Of a DNA stretch of 64,000 nucleotides, positions 3 through 17,466 are shown piece by piece. How positions within the stretch are numbered: position 1 is the stretch's first letter; every line of letters starts with the position of its first letter. The stretch is from assembly GCA_958296045.1 (NCBI GenBank), contig CATQHT010000002.1:744001-808000 (forward strand). The letters are read 5' to 3'. Made by a program: the position numbers and the translations under genes. The notes beneath the pieces are model-generated. The model was not told the DNA's origin and did no database searches. It saw only the letters and a program-made list of their open reading frames with translations. The DNA comes from Rhodothermales bacterium (GTDB lineage Bacteria; Bacteroidota; Rhodothermia; Rhodothermales; Bin80).

Positions 3-1046
3 GAATCCAACCCCCAAGCCGGGTGGCACGACTGCGAATACTATCGCAACCTCGGCGACGGCACCTTTGAAGAGGCGGCAAGGGAGATGGGGCTCGCGGT
101 GACTGGGTATGTTAAAGCTGTAATCAGCGGGGACTATAACAACGACGGATGGCCGGATCTGTACGTGTCGCGCTATGGAGATCCCAACCTGCTCCTGCAC
201 AACGTGGGCGGCGTGGCGTTTGAAGAGGTAGCGGCTGTGGCCGGGGTGCAAGAACCGATCGACAGCTTTCCGGCATGGTTTTGGGATGTGGATAACGATG
301 GGTGGCAGGACCTGTTTGTGTCTGGATGGCGGGCAAGTGCGGCAGATGTGGCGGCCGAATACCTAGGGCACGAGCGCGAGGACGCCAGGGCCAAGCTGTA
401 CCGCAACAACCAGGACGGCACCTTTACCGATGTGGCGGGTGCGTTCAGGCTGGACCGAGTGATTTTTGCGATGGGCTCGAACTTCGGGGACCTGGATAAC
501 GACGGCTGGCTCGATTTCTATGTCGGCACGGGGGATCCGAACCTGAGGGCGCTGATACCTAATCGGATGTTCCGCAATGACGCTGGTAAGCGGTTTGTGG
601 AGGTTACCACCTCTGGGGGCTTCGGACATCTGCAGAAGGGCCATGGCGTCGCGTTTGGCGACATCGATGGCGATGGCGACCAGGACGTGTACGCAGTGAT
701 GGGCGGTGCCTTCGAGGGAGACCTCGCCATGAACGTGCTCTTTGAGAATCCTGGCCACGGCAACGAGTGGGTAACGCTCGAGCTGGTAGGTACCCAGAGC
801 AACCGGAGCGCTATCGGCGCGCGCATCCGTGTGGATGTGGTGACCGAAGATGGCCGGCGTTCTATCCATCGTACCGTCTCCGCAGGCGGCAGCTTTGGCG
901 CCTCCAGCCTTTGGCAGGAGGTGGGGCTTGGGCAGGCGACAGCCATCGAAGCCCTCGAGGTCTACTGGCCCGCGCTGGGTAGCGTGCAGCGCCTAGAACG
1001 CGTATCCATGAGGCAGAAAGTGCGCATCGTGGAAGAGGAGCGCTAG
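3..1046 (+). CDS. VCBS/FG-GAP repeat protein with C-terminal ASPIC/UnbV domain (5' end cut by window)
   Basis: The frame is open from base 3, so the N-terminus lies outside the window. The visible part has repeated calcium-binding-like blade motifs of the type DYNNDGWPDLYV, DVDNDGWQDLFV, DLDNDGWLDFYV and DIDGDGDQDVYA, each preceded by a Y-R-N-x-G-D/Q-G-T-F motif. This is the FG-GAP/VCBS beta-propeller pattern of secreted or surface proteins. The last ~100 residues (NEWVTLELVG, SNRSAIGARIRV, then a W-P-L-G-S-VQRL ending) match the ASPIC/UnbV domain that often closes such propellers. The role is probably surface adhesion or carbohydrate/protein binding; no substrate can be read from the sequence. 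It is followed 119 bp later by a TonB-dependent receptor on the same strand. Confidence 0.88.
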   Translation, partial: ESNPQAGWHDCEYYRNLGDGTFEEAAREMGLAVTGYVKAVISGDYNNDGWPDLYVSRYGDPNLLLHNVGGVAFEEVAAVAGVQEPIDSFPAWFWDVDNDGWQDLFVSGWRASAADVAAEYLGHEREDARAKLYRNNQDGTFTDVAGAFRLDRVIFAMGSNFGDLDNDGWLDFYVGTGDPNLRALIPNRMFRNDAGKRFVEVTTSGGFGHLQKGHGVAFGDIDGDGDQDVYAVMGGAFEGDLAMNVLFENPGHGNEWVTLELVGTQSNRSAIGARIRVDVVTEDGRRSIHRTVSAGGSFGASSLWQEVGLGQATAIEALEVYWPALGSVQRLERVSMRQKVRIVEEER

Positions 1047-1165
1047 ATGTGCCCAGAGGCGTGGCGTCCCTGGGCTGCGCAGCCCTGCGCGAAACACCAA
1101 GCACAGCCAACAGTCCTAGGTAGTTCTATCGCATTCCTACACCAATTCCCGTTTTTATTTTCGTC

Positions 1166-3817
1166 GTGATCAAGCGATCCTGCCTGCTGCTGTTGCTGAG
1201 CTCCGTTGGCACCTCCCTTACCTACGGACAGGTGGTTAGCGGCCGGGTGCTGGCAGCGCTTTCGGATTCGGCACTCGCGGGTGCCTCCGTCACGCTGGAG
1301 CGGCATGGCATCGTGGCTCACGGAGCAGCGGCCGACAGCGCAGGCCGCTACTCATTGGTGGTGACGCGCGCTGGTACGTACCGGATCGTGGCTCGCCATG
1401 TAGGCTTTGGGACAAGCGCAGCCGCTATCCATGTCGGGGAGGATCCGGTCACGTATGACTTTAGACTGACGCCAGTGGCCATCGGTATGGAGGAGATCGA
1501 GATCCATGCCGAGCGTTGGCAGCTCGCTTACGATGTCGGCGTGGCTACCAGCCGGGTATCGGCGCGCGATGTGCAGGCGCTCGCCGGGGCAGGCGAGGAT
1601 GTGCTGCAGGCGCTGCGGGTTTTCCCTGGGGTGCAGACGTCAGGTGACTACTCGACGCAGCTCTATATCCGCGGCGGCACTCCAGATCAGAACCTCATCG
1701 TGATTGACGACATCGAGGTATTCAGCCCATACCAGCTCAGCGGCATGGGCAGCCTGCTGAATCCAGAGCTGGTGCGCGAAGTCGAGCTCTATCCGGGCAC
1801 GATGCCCGCCGAGTACGGGGACCGCCTGTCGTCCGCACTGGTGGTAACAACGCGCGAAGGGCGCACCGATGGCGCGCTGCACGGTCGCCTCAACACCACG
1901 ATGATGACGGTGAACGCTACGCTCGAAGGTGCTACTGGCTTTTGGGATGGAAGTTGGATTGCTAGCGGGCGCAAAACGTATTTCGGGTCGTTTGCAAACA
2001 CGCTGGCGCGCAGCATCGGCATATTCAACGAGATAGCGTTTCCCAACTTCGTCGACGGTCATTTCAAGGTCACGCTTCGCCCTGCGCCCCACCACATGAT
2101 GCGTGCTACCGTTCTTGTCAGCCAGGACCGTTTGAGCTGGGTGGTGGACGAGGATGCCGTCGCTTCGCAAGGGGACACAGAAAGCCTGCAGCGTGGCGAC
2201 AAAGACCTCTCACATTCTGCGGCGGGTATCCAGTGGCACTACGTGCCCAGTGCGGCCACCAGCGTGCGCGGCTATGTCAACTGGTACGAAAACCGTGGCG
2301 GCAGCACGCTGGGCGGCGGCTTGCAGGCGTGGATGGGAGGGCTTAAGAATTTTGACAGCCCGTTCGGGCCGCCCGACCCCGTGTTTCCCAGCGATGCGGA
2401 GGCCACCTTCATTCAGGAGGAAGCGTACGCAGTGCGGAAAGTGTCGGCTGGCGTGCGCGCCGCGCTGGCGCGCCACACGCACATGATTGAGGCGGGCGCC
2501 GGAGCGGATCGCCTCACGTCCGCGCTCGACTTAGACTTTCGGGCCAACGAGTTTGCCCAGACCTTTTTTGATGCTATCCGCATGGCTGACCCGCTGGTGT
2601 CCGCGTTGGGCGACATGGCGTACATGGATCGGATGGACATGCGTGTGCATGCCTTTGTACAAGATCGAATCGAGGTGGCAGGAGGCGCGCTGTTTGTGCA
2701 GCCGGCGCTCCGTTACGACTATTTCGGTATTGTGGGGCAGGGTTACCTGACGCCGCGTCTGAGCCTTTCGATGCCATTGGGCACTGGATCCACGGTGCGC
2801 TTTGCTGGTGGACGCTATGTGCAGAGCCCGGGACTGGAAAAGACACTGGACCCGGACGACACCTACAACGCTGCACGCTTCCACAGCCTTGCCGGGTTGG
2901 CGGCCGAGGAAGCTTGGCATGCCGGCGCCAGCCTGTCGCTGAGGATGGGGCGCCGCTGGCATGTGCGGCTGCAGGGGTACCGCAAATGGTATCGTGCGCT
3001 TTTGACCCAAGACTATGCCGTGGAGCCGCGCGCAGTGGCCACCTATTTCCCTACCGGATCCCCAGAGGTTGGAAGGGTGGGACCGCTTACGCCCAGTGCG
3101 TGGGTGATAGCATTTCAGGAGTCTCCAGTGCTGTTGCCTGGTCTAGTCAACACGGGGCGTGGTGCTGGCAGCGGCGCCGAGATTATCGTCGCGCTGAATC
3201 GGCTCCGACCTTCGGACCGGTTCAGTGGCTGGCTGTCCTATGCGCTGGCCGACGCCTGGCGCGAGGCGAGCTATGGAGCCGGACCGCTACGGCGCCCGTT
3301 TGCCTATGACCGGAAGCATACGGTGAGTCTGGTGGCGGCGTGGGAAGTGGCCCCCAGGTGGACGGCCGCGCTCACATGGCGATTCGGCACCGGATTTCCG
3401 TACACGCCAGCCACCGCCATGCGGGCCTTGGTGGTGCTGGTGGAAGACCCGAATGCGCCCGGCGTCACGCAGGAGGTGGTGCTGACGGATCCCAGCACCG
3501 GGTATGCGCGGCTCGTTCCCATGTTTGGCGGGCCAGAAAACCTGTATGCCGCGCGGCTACCCGCCTACCATCGGCTGGACCTGAGGGTCACTTATGAAGC
3601 CCGCTGGGAGGCGCTGGATGTGCGCATATATGCCGAAGCTATCAACGCCTACCATCGGCGCAACACGATAACGAACAAGTACCACGTTGGCACGGATGTC
3701 AAGGAGTGGCTGCATCTGCCATTGGCGCTCAGGCCGCCGCCCGCGCCGACGCTGTACCGGGAACCGATATACGGCTTTCCGTTCGTTCCCAGCCTTGGGC
3801 TTAGCTGCACCTTCTGA
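1166..3817 (+). CDS. TonB-dependent outer-membrane receptor with N-terminal carboxypeptidase-regulatory-like domain
   Basis: The 883-residue protein starts at GTG 1166 with a signal peptide (IKR then a Leu-rich core, cleavage near TYGQ). Residues ~25-105 form a carboxypeptidase-regulatory-like beta-sandwich (SGRVLAALSDSALAGASVTL, GRYSLVVTRAGTYRIVARHVGF), typical of Bacteroidota-type SusC-like and other receptors. The plug follows (DVLQALRVFPGVQTSGDYST, YIRGGTPDQNLIVIDDIEV, AEYGDRLSSALVV). The remainder is a beta-barrel with alternating aromatic/polar strands ending in C-terminal Phe. No SusD partner gene is adjacent, so it is not an obvious SusCD pair. Uptake substrate unknown. Confidence 0.92.
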   Translation: MIKRSCLLLLLSSVGTSLTYGQVVSGRVLAALSDSALAGASVTLERHGIVAHGAAADSAGRYSLVVTRAGTYRIVARHVGFGTSAAAIHVGEDPVTYDFRLTPVAIGMEEIEIHAERWQLAYDVGVATSRVSARDVQALAGAGEDVLQALRVFPGVQTSGDYSTQLYIRGGTPDQNLIVIDDIEVFSPYQLSGMGSLLNPELVREVELYPGTMPAEYGDRLSSALVVTTREGRTDGALHGRLNTTMMTVNATLEGATGFWDGSWIASGRKTYFGSFANTLARSIGIFNEIAFPNFVDGHFKVTLRPAPHHMMRATVLVSQDRLSWVVDEDAVASQGDTESLQRGDKDLSHSAAGIQWHYVPSAATSVRGYVNWYENRGGSTLGGGLQAWMGGLKNFDSPFGPPDPVFPSDAEATFIQEEAYAVRKVSAGVRAALARHTHMIEAGAGADRLTSALDLDFRANEFAQTFFDAIRMADPLVSALGDMAYMDRMDMRVHAFVQDRIEVAGGALFVQPALRYDYFGIVGQGYLTPRLSLSMPLGTGSTVRFAGGRYVQSPGLEKTLDPDDTYNAARFHSLAGLAAEEAWHAGASLSLRMGRRWHVRLQGYRKWYRALLTQDYAVEPRAVATYFPTGSPEVGRVGPLTPSAWVIAFQESPVLLPGLVNTGRGAGSGAEIIVALNRLRPSDRFSGWLSYALADAWREASYGAGPLRRPFAYDRKHTVSLVAAWEVAPRWTAALTWRFGTGFPYTPATAMRALVVLVEDPNAPGVTQEVVLTDPSTGYARLVPMFGGPENLYAARLPAYHRLDLRVTYEARWEALDVRIYAEAINAYHRRNTITNKYHVGTDVKEWLHLPLALRPPPAPTLYREPIYGFPFVPSLGLSCTF

Positions 3818-3832
3818 CCCTGATGCAAGGTC

Positions 3833-5707
3833 ATGGCTCGTCGACACAGGACCGGGATAGCTGCCAGGACATTTCTGCGTATCTGGCAAAACCTGGGGAT
3901 TGGGATTGTAATATGCGCAGGCTGCTGTCTGGCTCCGATTGCCCGTTCTCAGCCTACTGAACAGGGCTTTACAGACGCCGCCCGGTTTGGCGTCTTGCTA
4001 CAGTCAACGGAAGCGTACTTGAATCTCATCACTTCACTGGGTGACGGCCAGCCGTGGAGCGATTCTGCGGCGGTGCATCGGCACCTGGCGCAGTTGGCAC
4101 TGGTGTTGCCTGGCGAGGTGATGCGCGAAGTGGCAGTGGGTGACCTTCGGCATGCCCCAGAGAAGGCGCAGATCCTGCCTGGTGCGGGCGCGCGCCTAAG
4201 GAATTGGTGGCGGCGTCAGGATCCGCTACCGGCCTCGCCGCTCAATGAACGCCTGGTCGAGCATGTGCAGCGGGTGCTGCACGCCGAGGCCCATTTGGGT
4301 TCCGGCATGCGACCGACCAGGCTCGATGACCGCGGCGAGATATACGTGATGTACGGGCGCCCAGAGCGCGAGCTCGTCGTCCGCTTTGACGATCCCGAGT
4401 TCACGGATCAGATCTACCAGTTCGGGCTGGCTATCAATCAGTCCGACTTTCCAGACAACGTGTTTTGGCGCTACGGGCACATTGACGGAAGCGGTCATTA
4501 CCTGTTTCTGCTCAAGGATGGCCAGTACAGGATCGGCCAGACGACAGATCTGTTGCCCAGGATGCTGCGGAGTGGCTTTTCGCCGGATCCGCGTGGTAGG
4601 AGGCGTGCGCAGATGGCGCTGGCCACGATGCGGACGATATATCGGCAGCTTGCTGCTGAGGATCCGGTATTTCTGGAGCGTTACAGCGCGGTGGATAGCT
4701 ATCTTGCGGCGCAAGAAGCGCCGGGGCGCGTGGCGTCTCGCGTGTTGGGAGAGGCATTCAGAAGGACGGTGCTGGACCAGGACGATTACACGGAGCTGCA
4801 GCCGGGGGGCAATGAGCGTCCCCCCAGCGAGGTAATTCAGAGCACGATCACGTCTTCTAGGGTGAAGGATGCGCAGCTGGCCTACCAGCGTTCGGTGTTA
4901 ATGCCGCCCGACTATTCGGAGGTGCACCGGATGGTGCGAAACCTCCCCATGGGTTTGCGCACCGCACGGTTTCTGGATCGGGACGGAACGACGCGCACGG
5001 AGCTGTATTGGGGGCCGGAGCCTGGAGCGCTGCGCAGCACGGCACTTGAGGAAGACTACGCGTTGCACCTGACGGCTGTGCAGATGGGGCCTGACTATGT
5101 GCGGCGCGCGGTGTCGGTCAGCTCTATCCGCATCCAGGACCTGCCGCGTGGGCGTGACGCGGTCATCCCTGCGCAGCAGGCGATCGTACGCGGCGACACC
5201 GGCCTGTACCATCTTGCTGTGCAGTGGGACCTCTACCGGTTGACCGCAAGGCGTGTCAGAGGAGAGCGTATCGCGGCTGGGGCCAGGCATGTTGATTCGC
5301 TCAGCGCGCTGGATGCCGCTGGGACTGCATTGGAGATGAGTGACCTCAAGCCGGTCATGATGTGGTCTGCGGTGGAGCTGGTCGGGGAATCTGTTCCGTA
5401 TCCGTTTATGCAGGTCGCATCGGACATGCCGCTTGGGCTGTATTTCGAGCTTTATCATCTTACCTATGACCGTGACGACTATACGCGGTACAGTGTAACG
5501 TACCGTATCGCTGGTCAGGGGCCGGATGGTGCCGGGAGGAGCCCTACCTCAGTGACAGCGAGTTATACGGGAACCGCCATGCGTGATCAGCAGGAGGTGC
5601 TTCTGGACCTGACCGAATGGGCGGGGCCGGTGACGGTGACGGTAGCTGCGCGTGACCTGACGACCGGGCACACGGCACGTCGCTCCATAGATTTTGAGCT
5701 GTACTGA
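3833..5707 (+). CDS. GWxTD domain-containing secreted protein
   Basis: 624 residues. An N-terminal basic stretch and hydrophobic segment (IGIVICAGCCLAPIA) act as a signal peptide. Residues ~115-200 carry the family pattern: a W-W/R-R-x-D-P-x-P-x-(T/S)-P-x-N-E segment followed by LDDRGEIYVMYGRPERE, which corresponds to the 'TDRGRIYILLGPPDE' core of GWxTD proteins; the GW-TD residues themselves are changed here. The C-terminal half is beta-rich and of unknown function. The GWxTD family is common in Rhodothermota and relatives but has no assigned biochemical role. Its TGA stop overlaps the ATG of the next gene (TGATG at 5705-5709), so translation of the two is probably coupled. Confidence 0.8.
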   Translation: MARRHRTGIAARTFLRIWQNLGIGIVICAGCCLAPIARSQPTEQGFTDAARFGVLLQSTEAYLNLITSLGDGQPWSDSAAVHRHLAQLALVLPGEVMREVAVGDLRHAPEKAQILPGAGARLRNWWRRQDPLPASPLNERLVEHVQRVLHAEAHLGSGMRPTRLDDRGEIYVMYGRPERELVVRFDDPEFTDQIYQFGLAINQSDFPDNVFWRYGHIDGSGHYLFLLKDGQYRIGQTTDLLPRMLRSGFSPDPRGRRRAQMALATMRTIYRQLAAEDPVFLERYSAVDSYLAAQEAPGRVASRVLGEAFRRTVLDQDDYTELQPGGNERPPSEVIQSTITSSRVKDAQLAYQRSVLMPPDYSEVHRMVRNLPMGLRTARFLDRDGTTRTELYWGPEPGALRSTALEEDYALHLTAVQMGPDYVRRAVSVSSIRIQDLPRGRDAVIPAQQAIVRGDTGLYHLAVQWDLYRLTARRVRGERIAAGARHVDSLSALDAAGTALEMSDLKPVMMWSAVELVGESVPYPFMQVASDMPLGLYFELYHLTYDRDDYTRYSVTYRIAGQGPDGAGRSPTSVTASYTGTAMRDQQEVLLDLTEWAGPVTVTVAARDLTTGHTARRSIDFELY

Positions 5708-6054
5708 TGGCGCGATCCGAAGTGCAGCGGCAGGACTTTTTTCAGGCCGTGTGGCAGGTTGTGGCGCGTATTCCGCACGGGAGGGTAACGACCTATGGCC
5801 ACATCGCCGGGCACTTGGGCGTTAAGAGTGCTGCGCGCACCGTAGGTTGGGCATTGCGAGCTGCACGCCACGCGGATCTACCGTGTCATCGCGTGGTAAA
5901 CCGTTTCGGTGCCTTGACCGGCGCGCGGAGCTTTGATGGACCCTACCAGATGCGCGAGCTTCTGCTGCAAGAAGGCGTCGCCTTTGATGAAGAGGGGTGC
6001 GTAATTCTAGCGCGGCACCTCTGGATACCGGGTGAGTCCCGCACTCTGGCATGA
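5707..6054 (+). CDS. MGMT-family methylated-DNA-protein cysteine methyltransferase domain protein
   Basis: 115 residues, corresponding to only the DNA-binding/active-site domain of O6-alkylguanine-DNA alkyltransferases. The helix-turn-helix part (ARIPHGRVTTYGHIAGHLG) and the active-site loop LPCHRVVNRFGALTG are visible; the acceptor cysteine is Cys60 in the PCHRV motif. In alkyltransferase-like (ATL) proteins this Cys is replaced, usually by Trp, so the retained Cys argues for real dealkylation activity although the N-terminal domain is absent. It is translationally coupled to the GWxTD gene through a TGATG overlap, which looks like operon packing rather than a functional link. Confidence 0.87.
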   Translation: MARSEVQRQDFFQAVWQVVARIPHGRVTTYGHIAGHLGVKSAARTVGWALRAARHADLPCHRVVNRFGALTGARSFDGPYQMRELLLQEGVAFDEEGCVILARHLWIPGESRTLA

Positions 6055-6401
6055 CTGTGCTGCACAAGGCCTGCTTTAGCTCTAGCATGCCCCAGTATCT
6101 TATGCTTCGGGGTCTATGTGCGCCGGCGGCAGTCCGAATAGTGCCCCAGCTGGAGGCCGCAGCAAGACGTGAGAGAGAACACTGTGGCTCAAGGCAGCCG
6201 CAGGCGCCTGTGTGCTTGCTCAGAAGATGCCTTGTCGACGCCGCTGCAAGCGCTCTCGTCAAGCATTGTGGCTTTTGCACTCCAGACGGATAGGAATTGT
6301 GCCTTTGTACGTAAATTGGGTCGAAATTCGAGGCGTGTTGGTGGTTGGCGGCAGGCGCCGACAGGATAGGGGCCTGACCAGCCCGGTTCCGGGATGATCT
6401 G
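6055..6401. other. Intergenic region before the defence-like cluster
   Basis: About 350 bp without a supportable gene on either strand. It separates the GWxTD/MGMT pair from the TerB-type gene and must contain the promoter of the latter if the cluster is expressed independently. No clear -35/-10 pair, operator or terminator could be identified by eye. Confidence 0.6.
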
Positions 6402-8597
6402 ATGAGTGACCGAGACGACTTTTTCTACTTCCCGTTTCACGAAGGCCGGGATTCTCAACGTATCAGCCGGCTGGCGAATGTTGTCAGGATCAAGGATGTG
6501 GATTCGGCCTACGCATCTCGCTGGGTACCAGAGGGTGAGCTGGTCACCATTGCTGGCCGCGAAATCGATGGAGGAATCTACCTTGGTGCAGGACCCCCGA
6601 GAATTAAGCCGCCACCCTACTGCACATTAACTTACCACACACAATCAGTCCGAACTCCGTGGATTGACCCTGATTTACCGGTCAGTCCGCCGAATAGGAG
6701 TAGGTGGGTCTCGATCTATCCTGACAATCTGAGAGGTTACGCGCAGCAGGACGAGGATTTGCGCGGCAGTTACTTGGATTGGCTGTCGTCAGATAAGTGC
6801 TACTGGAATGGGGTGTGCGTCAGCTACCTGCTGACCTATTTCTACGGCTTAGAATTCCGGTTCTATGTTGATGATGCGGACCCCGAGGAGCGGGAGTCAA
6901 TCATTCTTGAGGTCTTACGACTGCAAGAACTCTGCCAATATCACAAAGATATGCTAGATGTGGCGCTCCCTTTTCTGCTGTGCGCCAACGCAGTTGTGGA
7001 GCGCTTCAAGTATGAATCTCCAATTGAGGGGGAATGGACCCATGACTTGATCGGTACCGGCTATTTTATGGACACGGTTGCCGTCAATTATGCACTGGGT
7101 CGCAGGATTGCTCAAGGCAAGGCCATCGATGCGGACTGGGTGCTGGCATGGGCTGTGGGTAAGCTGGGAAGTTTGCGCCTGCTGATGTCCAGCGAGACCG
7201 TGACAGAGCGGTTTGTGAAGCTCTTTCGCCTACTGTTCAAGGCCAAGTATCCTGGTGGCATCAAGGTCATCCCAGACGACCTTCCCCAGTTGACCTTCAA
7301 ATATCGCGCGGCTTCCGGCCTCTTTGAATGCGATATTGGCGATATGCTAGGACATGTTCCTGACGCTTTTCAATCGCAGGAGCTCTGGTTGGCCGCGAAA
7401 ACTGTAATGGCTGAGGCTGTCGCGGCATTCAGCCCATATGCCCAATGGGTTTTCGACAATCCTGAACTTGAGGATTCGCTCTATGCGCACCTACTGCTGC
7501 CGGAGCAACTGAAGCCCCTGTATTCGTGCAAAGAGGTCGATGGGCATCAAGCCTGGCTGGACGAGATTGCACAGCAGGGTGCGGCGGGCGATCTAACGTT
7601 GAGCACCGTCACGCTACGGATCGTGGGGGACACTGATCGGGTCTCTCACGAGGTCCAGACGAGGTGGGCCGCCGAGTGGCTCATGAAAATGGGATACGGC
7701 CTAGTGCCACAGCATAAGTTCGCACTGTGGCGTCTGGACCCCAGGCATCCAGCAATCATCTACCGGATTCCCAAAGAATCGCCGCGCGTATCGACGTACA
7801 AGACCAGATATCAGAGTGCGCTCTTGGCGGTTACTACGGGCGTCTATGTGGCCCGTATCGGAAGTCAGAAGGAGCCAATGGCGCCCGAAGTGCGTGAGGC
7901 GTTGTTTACGTTCATCCAGAAGGTCACGCCGGGTCGGGGAGAGCAGGCACGCCTGAGGGTGGATGTGGAATGGCTGACCGCGGTACACCTGTCGATCAGA
8001 TTCGTGAAACAGCTGGCTTCAGCGCCTGCGGTGACAAAGAGGCGGGCGCGCGAGGCTGCGCTGTCGGTAGCGGTGGCTCTCGGCGCGTTGGCATCCAAGA
8101 AGCTCCCAGCGCTTAAAAGGGTTTACGGGCTTCTGGGCCACGATGAAGCGAAGGCCTCGAGCGACCTGCACTCCCGGCTCAAGCTGGTCTCCCGCCCGAA
8201 GAAGAAGGTGGCAAAGCGCGCGCGAGATGGCGTGCGCCTGGATGCAAAAAAGGTTAGCGCTGTTCAGACGGCCACAGGGCGGGTCCGGCGGATGCTTGAC
8301 GAAGTGCTGGGCGAGGACGAGGTTTCCGTGGGCGCCACAGAAGGCAGCTCTGACGTGACGGTGGTCTTGGACGCTTCGCACCAGGCATTTCTACGCGCAC
8401 TGGTGGTGTCCATGGAATGGGAAGCCTCGGCCGCGGCAGATCTGGCACGGCAGCACAACCTTATGCTCGAAGGTGCGATTGAAGAGCTTAACACCTGGAG
8501 CAGCGACCGATATGACGAGCTGCTGGTAGAAGAATACGGCAGCTACGAGCTCAACGTCGATGTCGTGCGCCAGCTTGGTGCGGAGCTTGGGAATTGA
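6402..8597 (+). CDS. TerB-N / TerB-C domain protein, first gene of a BrxD-BrxHI cluster
   Basis: 731 residues, starting at ATG 6402. The N-terminal ~200 residues carry the TerB-N signature (ASRWVPEGELVTIAGREIDG, followed by IYLG, a proline-rich linker and SIYPDNLRGYAQQ). The C-terminal ~150 residues (VRRMLDEVLGEDEV, LDASHQAFLRALV, WEASAAADLARQHNLMLEGA, IEELNTWSSDRYDELLVEE) match TerB-C, which folds next to TerB-type domains. No classical TerB metal-binding acidic motif is evident in the middle. Proteins with this architecture recur beside BrxD-type ATPases and Lhr-like helicases in genomic islands; a scaffold or sensor role is plausible but unproven. The next gene follows after a 466-bp gap on the same strand. 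Confidence 0.8.
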   Translation: MSDRDDFFYFPFHEGRDSQRISRLANVVRIKDVDSAYASRWVPEGELVTIAGREIDGGIYLGAGPPRIKPPPYCTLTYHTQSVRTPWIDPDLPVSPPNRSRWVSIYPDNLRGYAQQDEDLRGSYLDWLSSDKCYWNGVCVSYLLTYFYGLEFRFYVDDADPEERESIILEVLRLQELCQYHKDMLDVALPFLLCANAVVERFKYESPIEGEWTHDLIGTGYFMDTVAVNYALGRRIAQGKAIDADWVLAWAVGKLGSLRLLMSSETVTERFVKLFRLLFKAKYPGGIKVIPDDLPQLTFKYRAASGLFECDIGDMLGHVPDAFQSQELWLAAKTVMAEAVAAFSPYAQWVFDNPELEDSLYAHLLLPEQLKPLYSCKEVDGHQAWLDEIAQQGAAGDLTLSTVTLRIVGDTDRVSHEVQTRWAAEWLMKMGYGLVPQHKFALWRLDPRHPAIIYRIPKESPRVSTYKTRYQSALLAVTTGVYVARIGSQKEPMAPEVREALFTFIQKVTPGRGEQARLRVDVEWLTAVHLSIRFVKQLASAPAVTKRRAREAALSVAVALGALASKKLPALKRVYGLLGHDEAKASSDLHSRLKLVSRPKKKVAKRARDGVRLDAKKVSAVQTATGRVRRMLDEVLGEDEVSVGATEGSSDVTVVLDASHQAFLRALVVSMEWEASAAADLARQHNLMLEGAIEELNTWSSDRYDELLVEEYGSYELNVDVVRQLGAELGN

Positions 8598-9063
8598 CTG
8601 CCGCGGCTAATGCCTCAAAGGAGGCAAGGGTCCTTGGGCCCAGTTGGCGTTTCAGGTGGCGACATCCCTTCCGGCACCGCTGTGCAGCCCGCATGGCTAT
8701 GCAGGTGATCGGTTGCGTAGCGACCTGGCCGATCCTTGGATGGATGGCCAGAGGAGTGCAGCACAGCCGTTGCAACCCTGCAGTGGAGGCATTGGCACGC
8801 ACCTTCGGGAACAGTTGCTTTCAGCGTAGGTACAATGGGAGGTAATCTGCAGACTGTTGGGGCATGTTCGGGACATGCATGTCCAGGGAGTGCATGTGCG
8901 CTATTGATGTGCGCTATTGACGTGAGTTGGCGGCAGCATGGCAGCTTCATAAGAATGTGCTAGAGCTGCATTGGGAATGGCGCAGCAGTCACGATGATTG
9001 GCTGCGCTGCCCAAAGGTCAATGCACCGGTGTCGGGTGTTCCTTAGTTCATAAATTGCGCTTT
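8598..9063. other. Intergenic region inside the TerB-BrxD-BrxHI cluster
   Basis: 466 bp with no convincing coding capacity, unusually long for a gap between co-directional partner genes. It includes a 13-bp direct tandem repeat (separate entry) about 145 bp before the BrxD-type start and several TGCATGT-like words. It probably holds a second promoter, so the BrxD/BrxHI pair may be controlled separately from the TerB-type gene. Confidence 0.5.
8894..8919 (+). repeat. 13-bp tandem direct repeat upstream of the BrxD-type gene
   Basis: The unit ATGTGCGCTATTG occurs twice with no spacer (8894-8906 and 8907-8919) and is followed by a partial third copy beginning ACGTG. It lies about 145 bp before the BrxD-type start codon. 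Head-to-tail repeats in this position can be binding sites for a regulator; that function is inferred from position only. Confidence 0.55.
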
Positions 9064-10389
9064 ATGACAGATCAACCATTAATCAAGCCCCGCGAGCGCG
9101 AGGCCATCATTGATGCGCTCCGGGCCGGCGTGGTGCCACGTATCGGGCTGCAGCATGTACAGGTTGGCCGTGCCGCGGAAACCCGAGAAATAATCCGTGA
9201 CATTGATCGGATCGTCGACGGTGGGGCCACGATCCGGTTCATCATTGGTGCTTACGGCTCGGGCAAGACGTTCTTTCTGAACCTGACGCGCCTTGTCGCG
9301 CTCAAGAAGGGCCTCGTGGTGATGTCGGCGGACCTTTCGCAGAACCGGCGGCTGTATGGTACGCAAGGCCAAGCCCGCATGCTGTACGCGGAGATGGCCA
9401 AGAATGTGGCTACGCTCACCAAGCCACTTGGCGGCGCTATGGCAGGGCTGGTGGAGCGCTTCATTCAGCAGTCCCGCAAAGAGGCGCAGGCCCAGGGAAC
9501 ATCGGTTAATCAAGCGATACGCTCAAAGCTGGTCAGCCTTGAAGACCTGGCCCGGGGCTACGACTTTGCCACCGTTATCGAACGTTACTGGGAAGGTTAT
9601 CAGAGCGGCGACGACAGGCTGGTCAATGCAGCGCTTCGGTGGCTGCGCGCCGAATTCAGCACCAAGACCGAAGCCAGACATGCGCTGGGCGTCAGAAACA
9701 TTATCAACGACAGCGCCCTGTATGATCAGATAAAGCTGATGGCCATCTTTGTCCGGCAGGCCGGATACAAGGGGCTCCTGGTATCCCTTGACGAGATGGT
9801 CAACATCTACAAGCTCATACAGGGGCGTTCGCGTGCACCCAACTATGAGCAGCTGCTGACTATTCTGAATGATGTGCTCCAGGGGACCGCTGCCTACCTG
9901 GGATTCGTCATGGGGGGCACGCCAGAGTTTCTTGGCGACACGCGTCGCGGGGTGTTCAGCTATGAGGCGCTCAAGTCGAGGCTGGAGGACAACATCTTTG
10001 CCAAAGACGGACTGGTAGACCTGACAGGTCCGGTAATTCGTCTGAAAAGCCTCACTCAGGAGGATCTGTTCGTGCTGCTTACGAACGTGCGCCGGGTAAT
10101 GTCGGACCGGATCACTCCGCTGCCAGATAAGGCGCTGAAAGCCTTTATGGAACACTGCTTTGAGACGATTGGGGAAGCCTACTTTAAGACGCCTCGTCAG
10201 ACCGTTAGGGCGTTCGTGGGAATGCTTTCGGTGCTTTCGCAGAACCCCGGCACGAAGTGGCAGGATCTGGTGGGCAAGGTTTCGGTGGACCAGGATCCAG
10301 GTGCGGGTGCCGCTGCGGCTCTGACCCGCGGTGCAAAGGTGGCCGACGAATTCAAGAACTTCAAGCTTGTGCCAGGTGGCAGGGCTTGA
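9064..10389 (+). CDS. brxD: BrxD-type P-loop ATP-binding protein (DUF2791 family)
   Basis: 441 residues from ATG 9064; an upstream GTG in the same frame (8998) would add 22 residues without family resemblance. The protein opens with IKPREREAIIDALRAGVVPRIGL and GREIIRDI-type segments typical of BrxD, then a Walker A motif GAYGSGKT at 62-69. The middle contains LLVSLDEMVNIYKL, a Walker-B-like strand ending in D-E. A late SYEALKSRLEDN/LTGPVIRLKSLTQEDLFVLL block is also characteristic. In type 2 BREX, BrxD is paired with the helicase BrxHI, and that pairing is seen here because the helicase gene overlaps this one. No pglX, pglZ or brxC homologue is adjacent. Confidence 0.85.
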   Translation: MTDQPLIKPREREAIIDALRAGVVPRIGLQHVQVGRAAETREIIRDIDRIVDGGATIRFIIGAYGSGKTFFLNLTRLVALKKGLVVMSADLSQNRRLYGTQGQARMLYAEMAKNVATLTKPLGGAMAGLVERFIQQSRKEAQAQGTSVNQAIRSKLVSLEDLARGYDFATVIERYWEGYQSGDDRLVNAALRWLRAEFSTKTEARHALGVRNIINDSALYDQIKLMAIFVRQAGYKGLLVSLDEMVNIYKLIQGRSRAPNYEQLLTILNDVLQGTAAYLGFVMGGTPEFLGDTRRGVFSYEALKSRLEDNIFAKDGLVDLTGPVIRLKSLTQEDLFVLLTNVRRVMSDRITPLPDKALKAFMEHCFETIGEAYFKTPRQTVRAFVGMLSVLSQNPGTKWQDLVGKVSVDQDPGAGAAAALTRGAKVADEFKNFKLVPGGRA

Positions 10390-12595
10390 ATCACTGGCGC
10401 TTGAGGTCCAGAGCTGGGCACGCAAGGAGAACATTTACCAGCTGCACCCCATTCAGGAGCTGGCCATCGATGCGGTTCTTGGCAGTGCCGCGGACCTCAT
10501 ATTGATGGCCCCGACGGCGGGAGGAAAGACCGAGGCGGTGTTCTTTCCGCTAATCTCATCATTGTTGCGTAATCCTGTTCGCCGGGGGTTTGATCTGGTC
10601 TATGTTGGACCACTCAAGGCGCTCATCAACGATCAGTTCGGCCGCCTGAACGACTTGTGCGAGGAGACCGAAGTGAAGGTCGTGCCTTGGCACGGCGACG
10701 TGGCACAGTCCAAGAAGATAGGGGCGTTGAAGGATCCCAAGGGTATCCTGCTAATCACGCCGGAGTCGCTAGAGGCATCCTTTGTGCTGCGCGGACCTGA
10801 GATGTCGCGCCTTTTTGGCCATGTGCGGGCCGTTGTGATTGACGAGCTACATGCGCTTTTGGACAATGAGCGCGGCATTCAGCTGCGCTCGCTCCTGACA
10901 AGGATGGAGATCGCTGCAGGGCGCACGATACGCCGCATCGGCTTGTCGGCCACGCTGGGATCGAAACGTCTGGCGTGCGCATATCTGCGCCCCGAGGAGC
11001 CCGAGACGGTGCAGGTGCTGACGTCCTCTAAGAGCTACCACTTGGGGGTGTACCTGCGTGCGTATACGGCTCAGGATGGTGCGGCGGGCGAACCAATGGT
11101 GAGCGACCCGGAAGATGCCGCCAAGTGGGGGGTCGCAAGACATCTGTACGAACGGCTTAGAGGTACCTCGAACTTGGTGTTCGCCGGTACGCGCCGCAAT
11201 GTGGAATGGTATGCAGTGGCCCTTCGAAAGTTGTCCAAAGGACAGGGGGAGTTCTTTCCGCATCACGCCAACCTTTCGCGGGCTCATCGTCATGACCTTG
11301 AAAAGCGCCTGAAGCGGGGCAGGGTGGCAACCATCATTTGCACCTCCACCTTGGAGCTCGGCATTGATATTGGCAGTATTGCGTCTGTCGGCCAGATCGG
11401 TCCGCCCTTCTCGGTGGCGTCGCTGCGCCAGCGCCTAGGCCGATCAGGCCGCAAGGGTGATGGCGGGAGGCTGCGCATGTACTGTATCGGGGAGGTGCCA
11501 GGGAGCGAGGGCCACGTTCTCGGCCGGCTGCAGCTGGACCTAGTGCGCAGCATCGCGATGATACAGCTGCTCCTTAGCGCATGGTGCGAACCACCGCGGC
11601 CACAAGCGCTGCACCTCTCTACGCTGGTACACCAGATAATGGCGCTTATCGCAGAGCGTGGTGGGCTGCGGGCTGCGCAGATCTATGAGGTATTATGCCT
11701 CCGCGGTCCCTTCCGGCGCGTGGACCAGGACCTCTTCATAAAAGTCCTGCGCCGTCTGGGCAGCCCGTCGGTGGATCTCCTCGAGCAGGCCCCAGATGGG
11801 ACACTGCTCCTAGGGCAGAAAGGGGAGCGTATGGCATCGCACTACAGCTTCTATGCAGTGTTTCAGACCACACAGGAATTTAGCGTAGTCAATACCGCCA
11901 CGGGCAAGACGCTCGGGACGTTGCCTGTTTCCGGGCAGATTCAAGAGGGTGAGAGAATCATGTTTGCCGGTACGTTGTGGTATATCAGCATGCTGGACGA
12001 GTTGAAGAAGGTGATTCACGTCAGGCCGGCAAAGCATGGCGAGGCGCCTCCGTTTGGTGGCTCGCCAGGCGGCTCGATTCACGATCGGGTGGTGCAGGAG
12101 ATGCGCCAAGTGCTCCGCCAGTCTGACGCGCCATCCTATCTGGACGACCGAGGCCGGGAGCTCTTGGCTTCGGCACAGGGCGCGTACAAGGACTTGGAGC
12201 TGGACCAGTACGCGATCCTTGAGGTTGCCTCGAAAGCCACGATACTGGCGACATGGGCGGGCACGGTAAAGACGAATACGCTCGGGTTGTACCTGGAGTC
12301 TATCGGGTACAAGGTCCGCCGGTACTGCGGCTTCCTAGAGGTGTCTGGCTTGGAGGACCATCCGCCGGTGTCCCTAGTGGTGGAGAACATCGCTAGCGCA
12401 TCGCCTGACAGCTTCCAGATGCTGCCGCGCAGCCCGAGACGGCTAATGACAGAAAAGTATCACCCCTTCCTGGATACGGAACTGCTCTTGTATGACGCCG
12501 CAAGCAGCCATTTCGATCTGGCCGCTTTGCCCGATGTGGCGCGAGCGGTTCTGGAGCCAGGCATGGATGCTCCTGCCAGCCAGCTACCAGCCTAG
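10376..12595 (+). CDS. brxHI: BrxHI-type Lhr-like DEAD/DEAH superfamily II helicase
   Basis: 739 residues if translation begins at GTG 10376, which overlaps the BrxD gene by 14 bp; the same frame is open further upstream to GTG 10331, but the extra residues look like out-of-frame BrxD sequence. Helicase motifs are in order: Q-like HPIQELAIDAV, motif I APTAGGKT (residues 45-52), motif Ia VGPLKAL, motif II DELH, motif III SAT (GLSATLG), motif V LELGIDIG and motif VI QRLGRSGRKG. The Lhr-type C-terminal region continues for about 350 residues without an obvious nuclease. The enzyme probably translocates on DNA together with the BrxD ATPase. It ends 16 bp from the convergent aroA gene. Confidence 0.87.
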   Translation: MAGLESLALEVQSWARKENIYQLHPIQELAIDAVLGSAADLILMAPTAGGKTEAVFFPLISSLLRNPVRRGFDLVYVGPLKALINDQFGRLNDLCEETEVKVVPWHGDVAQSKKIGALKDPKGILLITPESLEASFVLRGPEMSRLFGHVRAVVIDELHALLDNERGIQLRSLLTRMEIAAGRTIRRIGLSATLGSKRLACAYLRPEEPETVQVLTSSKSYHLGVYLRAYTAQDGAAGEPMVSDPEDAAKWGVARHLYERLRGTSNLVFAGTRRNVEWYAVALRKLSKGQGEFFPHHANLSRAHRHDLEKRLKRGRVATIICTSTLELGIDIGSIASVGQIGPPFSVASLRQRLGRSGRKGDGGRLRMYCIGEVPGSEGHVLGRLQLDLVRSIAMIQLLLSAWCEPPRPQALHLSTLVHQIMALIAERGGLRAAQIYEVLCLRGPFRRVDQDLFIKVLRRLGSPSVDLLEQAPDGTLLLGQKGERMASHYSFYAVFQTTQEFSVVNTATGKTLGTLPVSGQIQEGERIMFAGTLWYISMLDELKKVIHVRPAKHGEAPPFGGSPGGSIHDRVVQEMRQVLRQSDAPSYLDDRGRELLASAQGAYKDLELDQYAILEVASKATILATWAGTVKTNTLGLYLESIGYKVRRYCGFLEVSGLEDHPPVSLVVENIASASPDSFQMLPRSPRRLMTEKYHPFLDTELLLYDAASSHFDLAALPDVARAVLEPGMDAPASQLPA

Positions 12596-12611
12596 CTGGC
12601 CGACTGACGCC

Positions 12612-13898
12612 CTACGCGCGTATAGCGATGCGCCGCAGTGCGTCCCAGAACCCGGGAAAGGACACATCAGCAACCTCTGCGTGCCGCACGGTGGTGGTGC
12701 CGCGGGCCACCAGAGCAGCGATGCCCATCGCCATGGCGATACGGTGATCGCCCAAGCTGTCGGTAGGTGCTCCCTGTAGAGGCATACCTCCTTCGACAAC
12801 AAATCCGTCTTCGAGTTCATGGACATCAGCGCCCAGCGTGCGCAGGTTGGTCACCGTCGCACGGATCCGGTCGCACTCTTTGTGGCGCAGCTCCGCAGCG
12901 CCAGTGACCGTGGTGCGCCCGCGTGCGCAGGCCGCTGCGACCGCCAGCACCGGGAGCTCGTCAATGAGGCTGGGGATGAGCGCACCGCTCAAGGTGATGC
13001 CTTGGAGTTCGGCGGGGCGTACCGTCAGGTCCGCTATCGGCTCCGGGCCGGTCTGATGCATTGGACCCACGCTGATGTTGGCACCCATGCCTCTTAGTAC
13101 GTCGACCAGGGCGCTACGCGTGGGATTGATGCCCACGCTCGGCAGGTACAGCACGCCTTCGGACACGACGGAGCCAGCCACCAGAAAGAAGGCTGCCGCA
13201 GAAAAGTCTCGCGGTAAGGAGAGCGTCTGACAGGGTACAGGATCTGACGCGCAGGCGTAGATGTGCCGCGCGGCGCCCTGCTGCTTCACCTTCAGCCCCA
13301 GCATGCGCTCGGTGTGGTCGCGCGACTGCACGGTCTCTATGACCTCAGTGGTGTGTTGGGCAAACAGCCCAGCCAGAAGCACGCAGGACTTGACCTGGGC
13401 GGACGGTATCGGCAGGGGGTAGGTGATGGCGCTGAGCGGGTTCTGTGGCCGGATGTGGATAGGCGCGTGGTCGTCCGACAACGCGATGCTTGCTCCCATC
13501 TGGCGTAGCGGGTTCGCAATGCGCTGCATGGGGCGTACGCTGAGCGAGGCGTCACCGATGAGCGAGGCCCGCAGGCCCGCGCCCGCAACGATGCCAGACA
13601 GCAGGCGCATCGTCGTACCGGAGTTGCGGCAGTCCAGCGGATGCTCAGGTGTGCTAAGCCCCTCGCGCCCCTGGCCCTCGATAACGATTTCGCCCGGGCG
13701 GTTTTCGGTGACGTGGATGCCCAGCTGCCTAATGCAGGAAAGCGTAGAACGCGGATCGGCAGCCAGAGGGAAATTCGTGATGCGGGAGGTGCCATCCGCG
13801 ATAGCGGCAAAGAGCGCCGAGCGGTGCGCGACTGACTTATCTGCTGGCAGAAGCACGGTGCCGCTCAGGCCTTGAGCAAAGGTCACCTTCTGATCCAT
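12612..13898 (-). CDS. aroA: 3-phosphoshikimate 1-carboxyvinyltransferase (EPSP synthase)
   Basis: 428 residues from ATG 13898; the open frame extends 26 codons further upstream but those lack family similarity. The enzyme transfers enolpyruvyl from PEP to shikimate-3-phosphate in aromatic amino acid synthesis. Visible motifs are the N-terminal LPADKSVAHRSALFAAIADG (the usual PGDKSISHR site), CRNSGTTMRLLSG, GDASLSVRPMQR, RDFSAAAFFLVAGS, the DELPVLAVAA segment, and LRHKECDRI near the C-terminus. The length is normal for the family. It is convergent with the helicase gene and divergent from the tatA-like gene. Confidence 0.95.
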   Translation of the reverse strand: MDQKVTFAQGLSGTVLLPADKSVAHRSALFAAIADGTSRITNFPLAADPRSTLSCIRQLGIHVTENRPGEIVIEGQGREGLSTPEHPLDCRNSGTTMRLLSGIVAGAGLRASLIGDASLSVRPMQRIANPLRQMGASIALSDDHAPIHIRPQNPLSAITYPLPIPSAQVKSCVLLAGLFAQHTTEVIETVQSRDHTERMLGLKVKQQGAARHIYACASDPVPCQTLSLPRDFSAAAFFLVAGSVVSEGVLYLPSVGINPTRSALVDVLRGMGANISVGPMHQTGPEPIADLTVRPAELQGITLSGALIPSLIDELPVLAVAAACARGRTTVTGAAELRHKECDRIRATVTNLRTLGADVHELEDGFVVEGGMPLQGAPTDSLGDHRIAMAMGIAALVARGTTTVRHAEVADVSFPGFWDALRRIAIRA

Positions 13899-14049
13899 AA
13901 GCACGGATAATACGGCAAGGATCGCGGAATGCTCACTCCCATGCGCCTCGCGGCCGGACTGCGGAACCCACTGCATGGGTCAGGGTACATGTATCGTGCT
14001 GCGCGGGTTGCGTATGTACATGTGCCACCACCTTCCTTGAGGTACTGCT

Positions 14050-14382
14050 ATGGGCGTATTGGGTTTAAACTTCCAATCTCTAGGCGCGCTGGAGCTCCTT
14101 ATCATCTTCATTGTGGTCCTCATACTTTTTGGAGCTAAGCGCATCCCGGAGATCGCCCGCGGGCTGGGCAAGGGTATCCGTGAGTTCAAGAGCGCCACCT
14201 CGGAAATCAGCCGCGAATTGACTGTCGAGCACAAGCAGCAGCGCTATTATCAGCCGCCAGCGCAGCAGCCTATCCATACGAGTCAGCCTCAGAACCCCCA
14301 TCCCCAATCGGCGGTCCCGCCGGCAGGATCCACACCAGTCTCGACTCCGCCGGCATCCACAGGGACTTCCGGCCAGCCGTAG
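14050..14382 (+). CDS. tatA: TatA/MttA-type twin-arginine translocase subunit
   Basis: 110 residues. An N-terminal transmembrane helix (LGALELLIIFIVVLILFG) is followed by the hinge and amphipathic helix AKRIPEIARGLGKGIREFKSA, which is diagnostic for TatA/TatB-type subunits; the short F-G hinge and lack of a TatB-like extended helix favour TatA. The last ~45 residues are a Gln/Pro/Ser-rich flexible tail. The protein would form the translocation pore for folded proteins carrying RR signal peptides. tatC is not in the window. It is 18 bp upstream of gatA on the same strand. Confidence 0.9.
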   Translation: MGVLGLNFQSLGALELLIIFIVVLILFGAKRIPEIARGLGKGIREFKSATSEISRELTVEHKQQRYYQPPAQQPIHTSQPQNPHPQSAVPPAGSTPVSTPPASTGTSGQP

Positions 14383-14400
14383 CGAGCACCAGCGCCTCGA

Positions 14401-15858
14401 GTGCCGTCCGCCCGGCGCGAAAGGATGGCCCCACCCACGTTCGCCGACACGCGAGCGGCCTTGGCTCGTGGCGCCACCACCTGTGAAGCGGTTGTCGATG
14501 CCTTTCTGCAACGTATTGCGGCGCATAAGCACTTAAACGCGTTTGTTCATGTAGATGCTGACGGCGCGCTAAGCGCCGCTCGCCAGGTGGATTGGCAGCG
14601 GGCAGCAGGTCACGCGCCCCCATTGGCCGGTCTGGTGCTGGCCGTCAAAGATGTGCTGTGTGTGCGGGACTGGCCGCTGAGCTGCGGGTCGCGCATGCTG
14701 TCAGGATTCCGGTCGTTGTACGATGCAACCGCGGTGGCGCGCCTCAAAGCCAGCGGTGCGATCCTTGTCGGCACGACGAACTGCGACGAATTCGCTATGG
14801 GCTCTTCCAGCGAGAGTTCGTGGCACGGCCCGGTCCTTAATCCTCGCGCAGAGGGGTATGTGCCTGGAGGTTCATCGGGCGGTTCGGCCGTTGCGGTGGC
14901 AGCCGGCCTGTGCCATGCGGCATTGGGATCCGACACCGGCGGCTCAATCCGCCAGCCAGCCGCGCTGTGCGGCGTGGTAGGTCTGAAGCCTACCTACGGC
15001 CGTGTGAGCCGCTACGGGCTGGTGGCCTACGCGTCCTCACTGGATTGCGTGGGGCCCCTGACACATACCGTGCACGATGCGGCGATCGTCTTGGACGCGA
15101 TGGCAGGCCAGGACGAGCGTGATGCCACATCGGTGCCGACGCGTGCGCCACATGTTGGCCAAAAGTGGCTTCATGATGCATGCGGATTGCGCTTAGGGGT
15201 ACCCGAAGAGTTTTTCGGGGCTGGGCTGGATGCAGGTATCCAGGAAGCGATCAAGAACGTGCTCGATCGATTGCGCGCCGCCGGGGCTCACGTTCGCTCG
15301 GTGTCGTTGCCGCATACGCGCTACGGGGTCGCCGTCTACTACATTCTGGCGACGGCGGAAGCCTCCAGCAACCTGGGGCGGTTTGACGGATTACGCTACG
15401 GGTATCGGCCAGAGGGGCACGAGAATATGAACCTGGAGGAGCTGTATGCGCGTGCGCGCTCTGAGGGGTTCGGTAAGGAGGTGAAGCGTCGCATCATGTT
15501 GGGCACGTATGTCCTTTCGGCTGGCTACTATGACGCTTACTATGCCAAGGCGCAGCGCGTGCGATCGCTGATAAGGCAGGACTTTGACCAGGCCTTTGAG
15601 GCGGTGGATGTGCTGGTGGCACCGGTAACGCCTGTGCCGGGTTTTCGGCTCGGCGCCATGACACGCGATCCATTGCAGATGTATCTCAGTGACACTTACA
15701 CGGTGACCGCCAACTTGGCGGGCGTACCTGGGCTGGCCGTGCCAGCAGGCGTACATGAAAACGGTTTCCCGATCGGGATTCAGATCCTGGGGCAGCCTTT
15801 TGATGAAGCGCGCCTATTGCAGCTGGGTGACCTCATAGTGCGGCTGCTGGGGCAATAG
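14401..15858 (+). CDS. gatA: Aspartyl/glutamyl-tRNA(Asn/Gln) amidotransferase subunit A
   Basis: 485 residues from GTG 14401; ATG 14425 is an alternative start. The amidase-signature catalytic triad is intact: Lys83 in LVLAVKDVLCV, the cis-Ser in PGGSSGGSA (Ser158) and the nucleophile Ser182 in SDTGGSIRQPA. The tRNA-dependent subunit is supported by the long GRFDGLRYGYRPEG and GFGKEVKRRIMLGTYVLSAGYYDAYY segments, which are specific to GatA rather than generic amidases. It supplies ammonia for conversion of Glu-tRNA(Gln) or Asp-tRNA(Asn); gatB and gatC are not next to it. A tRNA-Asn gene lies at 40912-40983 in this window. Confidence 0.94.
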   Translation: MPSARRERMAPPTFADTRAALARGATTCEAVVDAFLQRIAAHKHLNAFVHVDADGALSAARQVDWQRAAGHAPPLAGLVLAVKDVLCVRDWPLSCGSRMLSGFRSLYDATAVARLKASGAILVGTTNCDEFAMGSSSESSWHGPVLNPRAEGYVPGGSSGGSAVAVAAGLCHAALGSDTGGSIRQPAALCGVVGLKPTYGRVSRYGLVAYASSLDCVGPLTHTVHDAAIVLDAMAGQDERDATSVPTRAPHVGQKWLHDACGLRLGVPEEFFGAGLDAGIQEAIKNVLDRLRAAGAHVRSVSLPHTRYGVAVYYILATAEASSNLGRFDGLRYGYRPEGHENMNLEELYARARSEGFGKEVKRRIMLGTYVLSAGYYDAYYAKAQRVRSLIRQDFDQAFEAVDVLVAPVTPVPGFRLGAMTRDPLQMYLSDTYTVTANLAGVPGLAVPAGVHENGFPIGIQILGQPFDEARLLQLGDLIVRLLGQ

Positions 15859-15925
15859 GGGTCACAGCGTATATTGGCCAGACACGCGCAGCGTCCACAG
15901 ATTTCTAACGTACTAAGACGATTCA

Positions 15926-16795
15926 ATGAGCATACTTGTTGGCAACGACACGCGCCTAGTGGTTCAGGGTTTTACCGGCAAGGAAGGCACCTTCCATGCT
16001 GAGCAGATGATCGCCTTCGGGACATGTGTCATCGGGGGTGTCACACCTGGCAAAGGAGGGCGTATGCACTTGGAGCGGCCCGTCTTTGACACGGTGGTGG
16101 AGGCTGTGGAGCGTGAAGGCGCCAACACTTCCGTGGTGTTCGTGCCTCCCCCATTTGCGGCCGATGCGGTGATGGAGGCGGCCGCGGCAGGCATCGGCCT
16201 TGTCATCTGTATCACAGAAGGCATTCCGGTGCAGGACATGATCCGGGCACACCGGTTTGTTTCCGAGTGTGGCACTCGCCTTGTTGGCCCAAACTGTCCG
16301 GGCGTCTTGACGCCCAACCAAGCCAAGGTGGGCATCATGCCAGCCATGATTTTTGCGGAAGGGTCGATCGGGGTCATTTCGCGTTCCGGCACGCTGACGT
16401 ATGAGGCGGTGGACCAGCTCACGCGCGGCGGCTACGGTCAGAGCACGGCCATAGGAATCGGCGGGGACCCGATAATCGGCACGCGCTTTGTCGATGCGCT
16501 AAAACTTTTTGAGGAGGATCCCGATACCGAAGGGGTGGTGCTTATCGGTGAGATCGGCGGCACGGACGAAGAGGATGCTGCGGCATTTATCGAGGCGCAC
16601 ATGACCAAGCCGGTGATCGGCTTTATTGCTGGGGCTACCGCGCCGCCAGGGCGCCGGATGGGCCATGCCGGTGCGATAATTTCCGGTGGCAAGGGGACGG
16701 CCGAAGACAAGTTTGCCGCGCTGGAGGCTGCCGGGGTACATGTGGTGCGCAACCCTGCCCTGATTGGCCAGACCGTCAGAGAGGCAGGCCTGTAG
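15926..16795 (+). CDS. sucD: Succinate-CoA ligase (ADP-forming) alpha subunit
   Basis: 289 residues, the normal length. The N-terminal CoA-binding Rossmann part has [17 protein letters not shown] and GGVTPGKGG. The middle has [12 protein letters not shown] and [12 protein letters not shown]. The ligase part has [35 protein letters not shown] and the phosphohistidine loop [17 protein letters not shown]. The alpha subunit carries the transiently phosphorylated His and works with SucC (not in the window) in the TCA cycle. It ends 14 bp before engB. Confidence 0.96.
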
Positions 16796-16809
16796 TTGCG
16801 CGCATCATA

Positions 16810-17466
16810 ATGGCGGCTGGCGTGGAAATCAGGGATATCCGTTTTGGAGGTAGCGCTGCCAGTTGGGAGCAGTTGCCTGATGTAGCCTTGCCGGAGGTGG
16901 CCTTTATTGGGCGATCCAACGTGGGCAAGAGCTCCCTGATCAACCTGTTGGCGAGGCGAAAAAACTTGGCTCGCACCAGCAACGTCCCTGGCAAGACGCG
17001 CACCATCAACTGGTATCATGTGAATGGTGAGCTGTTGTTTCACGACCTGCCGGGCTTTGGGTATGCGAAAGTCAGCCGCTCGTTACGCAACCAGTGGCTG
17101 CGCTTGGTATCCAGCTACTTGGCGCATCGTCAGGAGCTGCGAGCGGTGGTGCACCTTATTGACAGTCGCCATGCGCCCATGCCGCTGGACCGCGAGGTGA
17201 TGTTAGTGATGCGTCCGCGCCCCGTAGCATATCTGGTGGCGCTCACCAAGGCGGACAAGCTCTCGGGCAACGGTCGCGCTAAGAGCTTAAAGCGCACTAG
17301 GCAGGTTTTGATCGAGTGTGGCGTGCAGGTGCCGGTCACGTTGTGTTCTGCTAAGACGCGCCGGGGGCGCGAGGAGCTGCTTGGCCACCTTGCCGCAGTA
17401 ATCAACAAGGCGGCGTTGCGCCGCACCGCGACGGGTGTTGGCGCTACGGCACAAGGACGACCTTGA
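16810..17466 (+). CDS. engB: Ribosome biogenesis GTP-binding protein YsxC/EngB
   Basis: 218 residues. The GTPase motifs are in order: G1 GRSNVGKS (34-41), G2 around TSNVPGKTRTIN, G3 DLPGFGYAKVS, G4 LTKADKLS and G5 CSAKTRRG. The NWY-VNGELLFHDLPGFGYA segment is specific for the YihA/EngB family, which acts in large-subunit assembly. The C-terminal end is extended by a Thr/Ala/Gly-rich tail. The 3' end overlaps a convergent pseudogene by 23 bp. This is the last housekeeping gene before the mobile-element region. Confidence 0.94.
   Translation: MAAGVEIRDIRFGGSAASWEQLPDVALPEVAFIGRSNVGKSSLINLLARRKNLARTSNVPGKTRTINWYHVNGELLFHDLPGFGYAKVSRSLRNQWLRLVSSYLAHRQELRAVVHLIDSRHAPMPLDREVMLVMRPRPVAYLVALTKADKLSGNGRAKSLKRTRQVLIECGVQVPVTLCSAKTRRGREELLGHLAAVINKAALRRTATGVGATAQGRP

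What the first reader, a model, noticed from the sequence alone, without database searches (positions are those of the whole stretch)
6402..12595. Three-gene TerB-N/C, BrxD and BrxHI cluster without the rest of BREX
Seen: a 731-residue protein with TerB-N- and TerB-C-like ends, a BrxD-type P-loop ATPase (GAYGSGKT) and an overlapping Lhr-like helicase (APTAGGKT, DELH, QRLGRSGRKG) on one strand. Known: BrxD and BrxHI are components of type 2 BREX phage defence. Missing within the flanks: pglX, pglZ, brxC/pglY, pglW. Inference: a compact defence module in which a TerB-type protein replaces the methylase/phosphatase part. All three frames are intact, in contrast to the decayed genes 5-20 kb away, which suggests selection.
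Basis: partly seen in the sequence, partly recalled or inferred. Interest (0 to 1): 0.8.

Follow-up and report, generated by a model that had tools for sequence, protein, structure and literature searches.

The report
Shango phage-defence operon, divergent sngA
The three genes are not a stripped-down BREX system but a copy of Shango, an already published three-gene bacterial anti-phage system; this copy has an unusual TerB protein that has lost its putative metal-binding residues and has two extra copies elsewhere in the genome.

Summary
In detail: three intact, co-directional genes (TerB-N/C protein, BrxD-like P-loop ATPase, Lhr-like SF2 helicase) lie at 6402-12595. The reading "partial BREX" is wrong. 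All three match the dedicated Shango profiles best: SngA 1.5e-43, SngB 5.4e-163 (BrxD only 6.5e-44), SngC 1.7e-229 (BrxHI only 2.3e-118). Shango is a published anti-phage system with exactly this gene set. In 80 SngB loci from other species, sngA and sngC adjoin wherever testable. The genome also has a separate BREX type-1-like locus in which no brxD or brxHI was found. The operon sits between ogt and aroA, which are neighbours in eight relatives. What is unusual is sngA. (i) All four TerB acidic positions, intact in 80 of 90 SngAs, are gone, although the TerB fold is predicted to persist. (ii) Two intact orphan sngA paralogues with the same loss lie elsewhere; the genome has one sngB. (iii) sngA and sngB are 466 bp apart; they usually overlap by 4 bp. 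(iv) Four of five Shango-bearing genomes of this family carry extra sngA copies, up to four in tandem; 15 SngA-bearing genomes of the phylum outside it carry one each. Ordinary system, mildly interesting variant.

The parts
6402..8597 (+). sngA: TerB_N (aa 43-251), TerB fold (aa ~456-609), TerB_C (aa 600-725); no N-terminal TM helix
7860..8102 (+). TerB acidic-site region of sngA; the conserved D487, E497, D560 and E567 are G, V, L and K here
   Evidence: 80 of 90 SngAs keep all four; only the three SngAs of this genome keep none
8598..9063 (+). 466-bp non-coding spacer between sngA and sngB; single copy in the genome; no trace of a decayed sngA
   Evidence: 84 other loci: median -4 bp, maximum 193 bp
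9064..10389 (+). sngB: BrxD-like P-loop ATPase (Walker A at 9247-9270)
10331..12595 (+). sngC: Lhr-like SF2 helicase (start codon uncertain; Walker A at 10508-10531)
5707..6054 (+). left flank: alkyltransferase-like ogt, neighbour of aroA in relatives without the operon at this site
12612..13976 (-). right flank: aroA (EPSP synthase)

Best explanation
The locus is a complete chromosomal Shango anti-phage operon (sngA-sngB-sngC) lying between the core genes ogt and aroA. Shown: its identity, intactness, conserved synteny and site. Inferred mechanism (about 40% likely in detail): SngB, a BrxD-type ATPase, assembles on DNA and loads or gates SngC, an Lhr-like SF2 helicase. SngC then remodels or translocates on phage DNA and obstructs replication without a nuclease of its own. 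SngA, with its TerB domain and a C-terminal winged-helix-like domain, is the recognition or regulatory subunit that brings the pair to the phage target. In this lineage the TerB fold is kept as a scaffold without its usual acidic (putative metal) site, and extra SngA paralogues may share the single SngB-SngC engine.
For: PADLOC best hits SngA, SngB and SngC. Published Shango has the same three genes and blocks several phage families (PMC10250203). The set is found in all 80 loci wherever testable, in one order but for one permutation, across Pseudomonadota, Actinomycetota, Chloroflexota, Armatimonadota, Acidobacteriota and others. The same seven of 99 genomes (this one and six relatives) carry SngA and SngB. 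ATPase and helicase motifs are intact; the window proteins depart at 15 of 167 conserved SngB columns and 9 of 156 in SngC. ogt and aroA are neighbours in eight relatives. dN/dS between two relatives is 0.11 for sngB and sngC and 0.22-0.36 for sngA. SngC groups with BrxHI, DruE and DpdJ helicases in the published tree (PMC12278908). TerB fold: 2ou3, Z 9.2; C-terminal winged helix: MukBEF and JetABC subunits, Z 6-7.
Against: No biochemical mechanism of Shango was found in the papers searched, so every mechanistic step is inferred. SngA of this genome is highly diverged (stem 1.2 changes per column), has lost otherwise near-invariant residues and is separated from sngB by 466 bp, so its function could have changed or weakened. 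The winged-helix match is below Z 8 and may be only a common arrangement.
Confidence: 0.85

Rival explanations
1. A remnant or accessory module of type 2 BREX (brxD-brxHI) with a TerB protein added, working with BREX genes elsewhere in the genome.
For: Genes 2 and 3 are homologous to BrxD and BrxHI, and a BREX locus is present on another contig.
Against: The SngB and SngC models score hundreds of bits higher. The trio recurs as a unit in many phyla. The genome's BREX is type-1-like (brxB, brxC, pglX, pglZ), and no brxD or brxHI was found in the stretch read around it.
Confidence: 0.03
2. A Shango relic: sngA in this lineage is decaying or has been co-opted, and the operon no longer gives full defence.
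For: Loss of all four TerB acidic residues, long sngA branch, and a 466-bp gap where others overlap.
Against: Three sngA paralogues of 725-731 codons, 39-53% identical, are all uninterrupted, which needs long purifying selection; sngB and sngC keep their catalytic motifs.
Confidence: 0.12
3. The TerB_N/TerB_C protein takes part in tellurite or stress response rather than phage defence.
For: TerB family name; TerB-domain proteins occur in Ter operons (own knowledge).
Against: Fixed linkage to a defence-type ATPase and helicase; Shango shown to inhibit phages.
Confidence: 0.03

Closest known systems
Shango (sngA-sngB-sngC; Millman et al. 2022, Johnson et al. 2023)
   Same: Same three families, gene order and strand, with intact ATPase and helicase motifs
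   Different: SngA is only about 20-30% identical to typical SngAs, lacks all four TerB acidic residues and an N-terminal TM helix (many other SngAs also lack the helix), is 466 bp from sngB, and has two orphan paralogues
BREX type 2 BrxD and BrxHI
   Same: Homologous ATPase and helicase pair
   Different: Lower profile scores; no pglX, pglZ, brxC or pglW linked; a TerB protein is present instead
TerB / COG3793 tellurite-resistance fold (2ou3, 2jxu)
   Same: Predicted TerB fold at SngA aa 456-609
   Different: Acidic residues of both helical pairs are replaced; embedded in a much larger protein

Membership tests
Shango | SngA with TerB_N / TerB_C architecture | tested here: met
   PADLOC SngA 1.5e-43
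Shango | ATPase that scores higher as SngB than as BrxD | tested here: met
   541 against 149 bits
Shango | Helicase that scores higher as SngC than as BrxHI | tested here: met
   762 against 394 bits
Shango | Adjacent, co-directional sngA-sngB-sngC | tested here: met
Shango | Anti-phage activity | not testable with these tools
   Needs plaque assays. Separately: the TerB acidic residues, common in SngA but not known to define it, are absent here
BREX type 2 | pglX, pglZ and brxC/pglY linked to brxD and brxHI | tested here: not met
   no PglZ match on this contig; no other full-length BrxC_BrxD-family match; flanks are ogt and aroA
BREX type 2 | BrxD and BrxHI as best-scoring families of the two genes | tested here: not met

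The most novel reading that the evidence does not exclude
SngA is the interchangeable recognition subunit of Shango: in this bacterial family it is amplified and diversified, in tandem (four copies before one sngB in G012 and G014) or as orphans (two in this genome, one in G010), while one SngB-SngC pair serves them all, much as spare specificity subunits serve a restriction enzyme. The lineage seen here does so with a TerB domain that no longer binds metal.
Probability: 0.3. Interest if true: 0.55.

Novelty: new variant of a known kind. Interest (0 to 1): 0.3.

Why it matters
The identification itself is routine. The variant gives a natural test of two open points about Shango: whether the TerB acidic (putative metal) site is needed, and which subunit decides the target. 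Repeated sngA multiplication against a fixed single sngB-sngC pair points to SngA.

Tried and rejected
Decayed sngA copy or repeat in the 466-bp gap: none found. Inverted repeats or other repeats marking an element boundary: none convincing. Promoter in the sngA-sngB gap: only a minus-strand consensus match, and counts near chance. Foldseek against PDB with the whole SngA model gave no match with E <= 0.001; VIA-align showed TerB and winged-helix matches, the rest of the protein was barely tested. Sequence search of PDB for SngB gave only weak, unrelated adaptor-complex hits. Enrichment of defence genes beside the 80 loci was not scored here; the published hotspot data were taken instead.

Full report
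Observation. Gene 1 has TerB_N and TerB_C, gene 2 the BrxC_BrxD ATPase domain, and gene 3 DEAD and Helicase_C domains.

What it is. Against PADLOC the best models are SngA (1.5e-43), SngB (541 bits, against 149 for BrxD) and SngC (762 bits, against 394 for BrxHI). That is Shango, reported as a three-gene system with TerB, ATPase and helicase domains that inhibits several phage families when PA14's copy is placed in PAO1, and also reported from E. coli (PMC10250203).

Is it a set? A SngB alignment (A1) drew 80 loci from genome records. sngC lies beside or near sngB in all 80, and sngA in all but L030, whose contig starts just before sngB. Order is A-B-C in all but one (L056, C-A-B). These are the 80 best of 542 relatives, so the figure describes close SngB relatives. 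In a search of 99 genomes (the window's own and 98 relatives), SngB and SngA occur in the same seven.

BREX in the same genome. A BREX type-1-like locus (brxB, brxC, pglX, pglZ and a second pglX) lies on contig C3. No brxD or brxHI was seen in the stretch read; the only full-length BrxC_BrxD-family match in the genome is the window's sngB. So nothing suggests that the window's pair serves it.

Site. The operon lies between ogt and aroA. In eight relatives of the same family these two genes are neighbours, within about 1 kb or less, so the operon was most likely gained here; no mobile gene or repeat marks the ends.

What is unusual: sngA. In an alignment of 90 SngAs the TerB region keeps acidic residues at four positions (487, 497, 560, 567 of the window protein) in 80 sequences; the window protein and both of its paralogues have none, and no other sequence has none. 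Position 497 lies close to an alignment gap, and a neighbouring glutamate (496) is present in the window protein, so that one position is less certain; the orphans lack it too. The predicted structure (mean pLDDT 84) still matches a TerB-family protein (2ou3, Z 9.2) at 456-609, and its C-terminal 75 residues or so resemble winged helices of MukBEF, JetABC and MarR proteins (Z 5-7). That these acidic residues bind metal in TerB is from memory and was not tested here.

Extra sngA copies. The genome holds two further intact sngA genes in tandem on C3 (1693096-1697679), 39% identical to the window's and 53% to each other, with no sngB or sngC beside them. The three form one clade with full SH-aLRT support. 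In the same family G012 and G014 have four tandem sngA genes before a single sngB-sngC, and G010 has one in the operon and one orphan; these belong to a different sngA clade, so the multiplication happened at least twice. All copies in the G012/G014 arrays look to be under purifying selection (dN/dS 0.22-0.36, against 0.11 for sngB and sngC). Of five Shango-bearing genomes of this family four have extra copies; of 15 SngA-bearing genomes of the phylum outside it, none does. By my arithmetic that is about 0.001 by Fisher's test, or 0.004 with G012 and G014 counted once; kinship is not otherwise corrected, and only two of those 15 were checked for sngB.

The sngA-sngB junction. In 84 other loci the two genes overlap by 4 bp at the median and are at most 193 bp apart; here the gap is 466 bp. 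It is single-copy and shows no trace of sngA.

Mechanism. Shown: identity, synteny, intact catalytic motifs. Inferred: SngB loads or gates SngC on phage DNA; no nuclease domain was found in the three proteins, so obstruction or remodelling is preferred over cutting; SngA directs the pair. The repeated amplification and faster evolution of sngA against a single conserved sngB-sngC fits a recognition role, but dosage or regulatory roles are not excluded.

Verdict. A known system, in a new and somewhat divergent member. Interest is modest and rests on sngA.

Noticed in passing
L012 (G000:C3:2038000-2057999) 6872-10463, C tract near 7730-7738: The first pglX of the BREX type-1-like locus is split over two frames at a run of eight C just before its DPACGSG motif, as in a phase-variable gene in the off state (an assembly error is not excluded); a second, intact pglX follows pglZ at 13671-17213.
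   Followed up: partly
L004 (G000:C3:1685000-1704999) 5564-12695: The orphan sngA pair lies next to a broken IS transposase and an ORF (6837-7391) that ends in a hydrophobic stretch, among housekeeping genes.
   Followed up: partly
L126 (G002) 475-1495: The ogt-aroA slot of the relative with a single-contig genome holds about 1 kb with a fragment (786-1292) that looks like an ATP-binding or Schlafen-type remnant (by eye, not profiled), so the slot may be a recurrent insertion site.
   Followed up: no
L010 (G000:C3:1211125): A DpdJ-type helicase (755 bits), suggesting a Dpd (7-deazapurine DNA modification) system in the same genome.
   Followed up: no
L138 (G010:C136) 1018-4058: G010's orphan sngA directly follows a type IIG restriction-enzyme C-terminal fragment.
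   Followed up: partly
SngA set of 90 sequences: Over half of SngAs have an N-terminal hydrophobic helix (51 of 90 with a strong one), so many Shangos may be membrane-anchored; those of this genome are not.
   Followed up: partly
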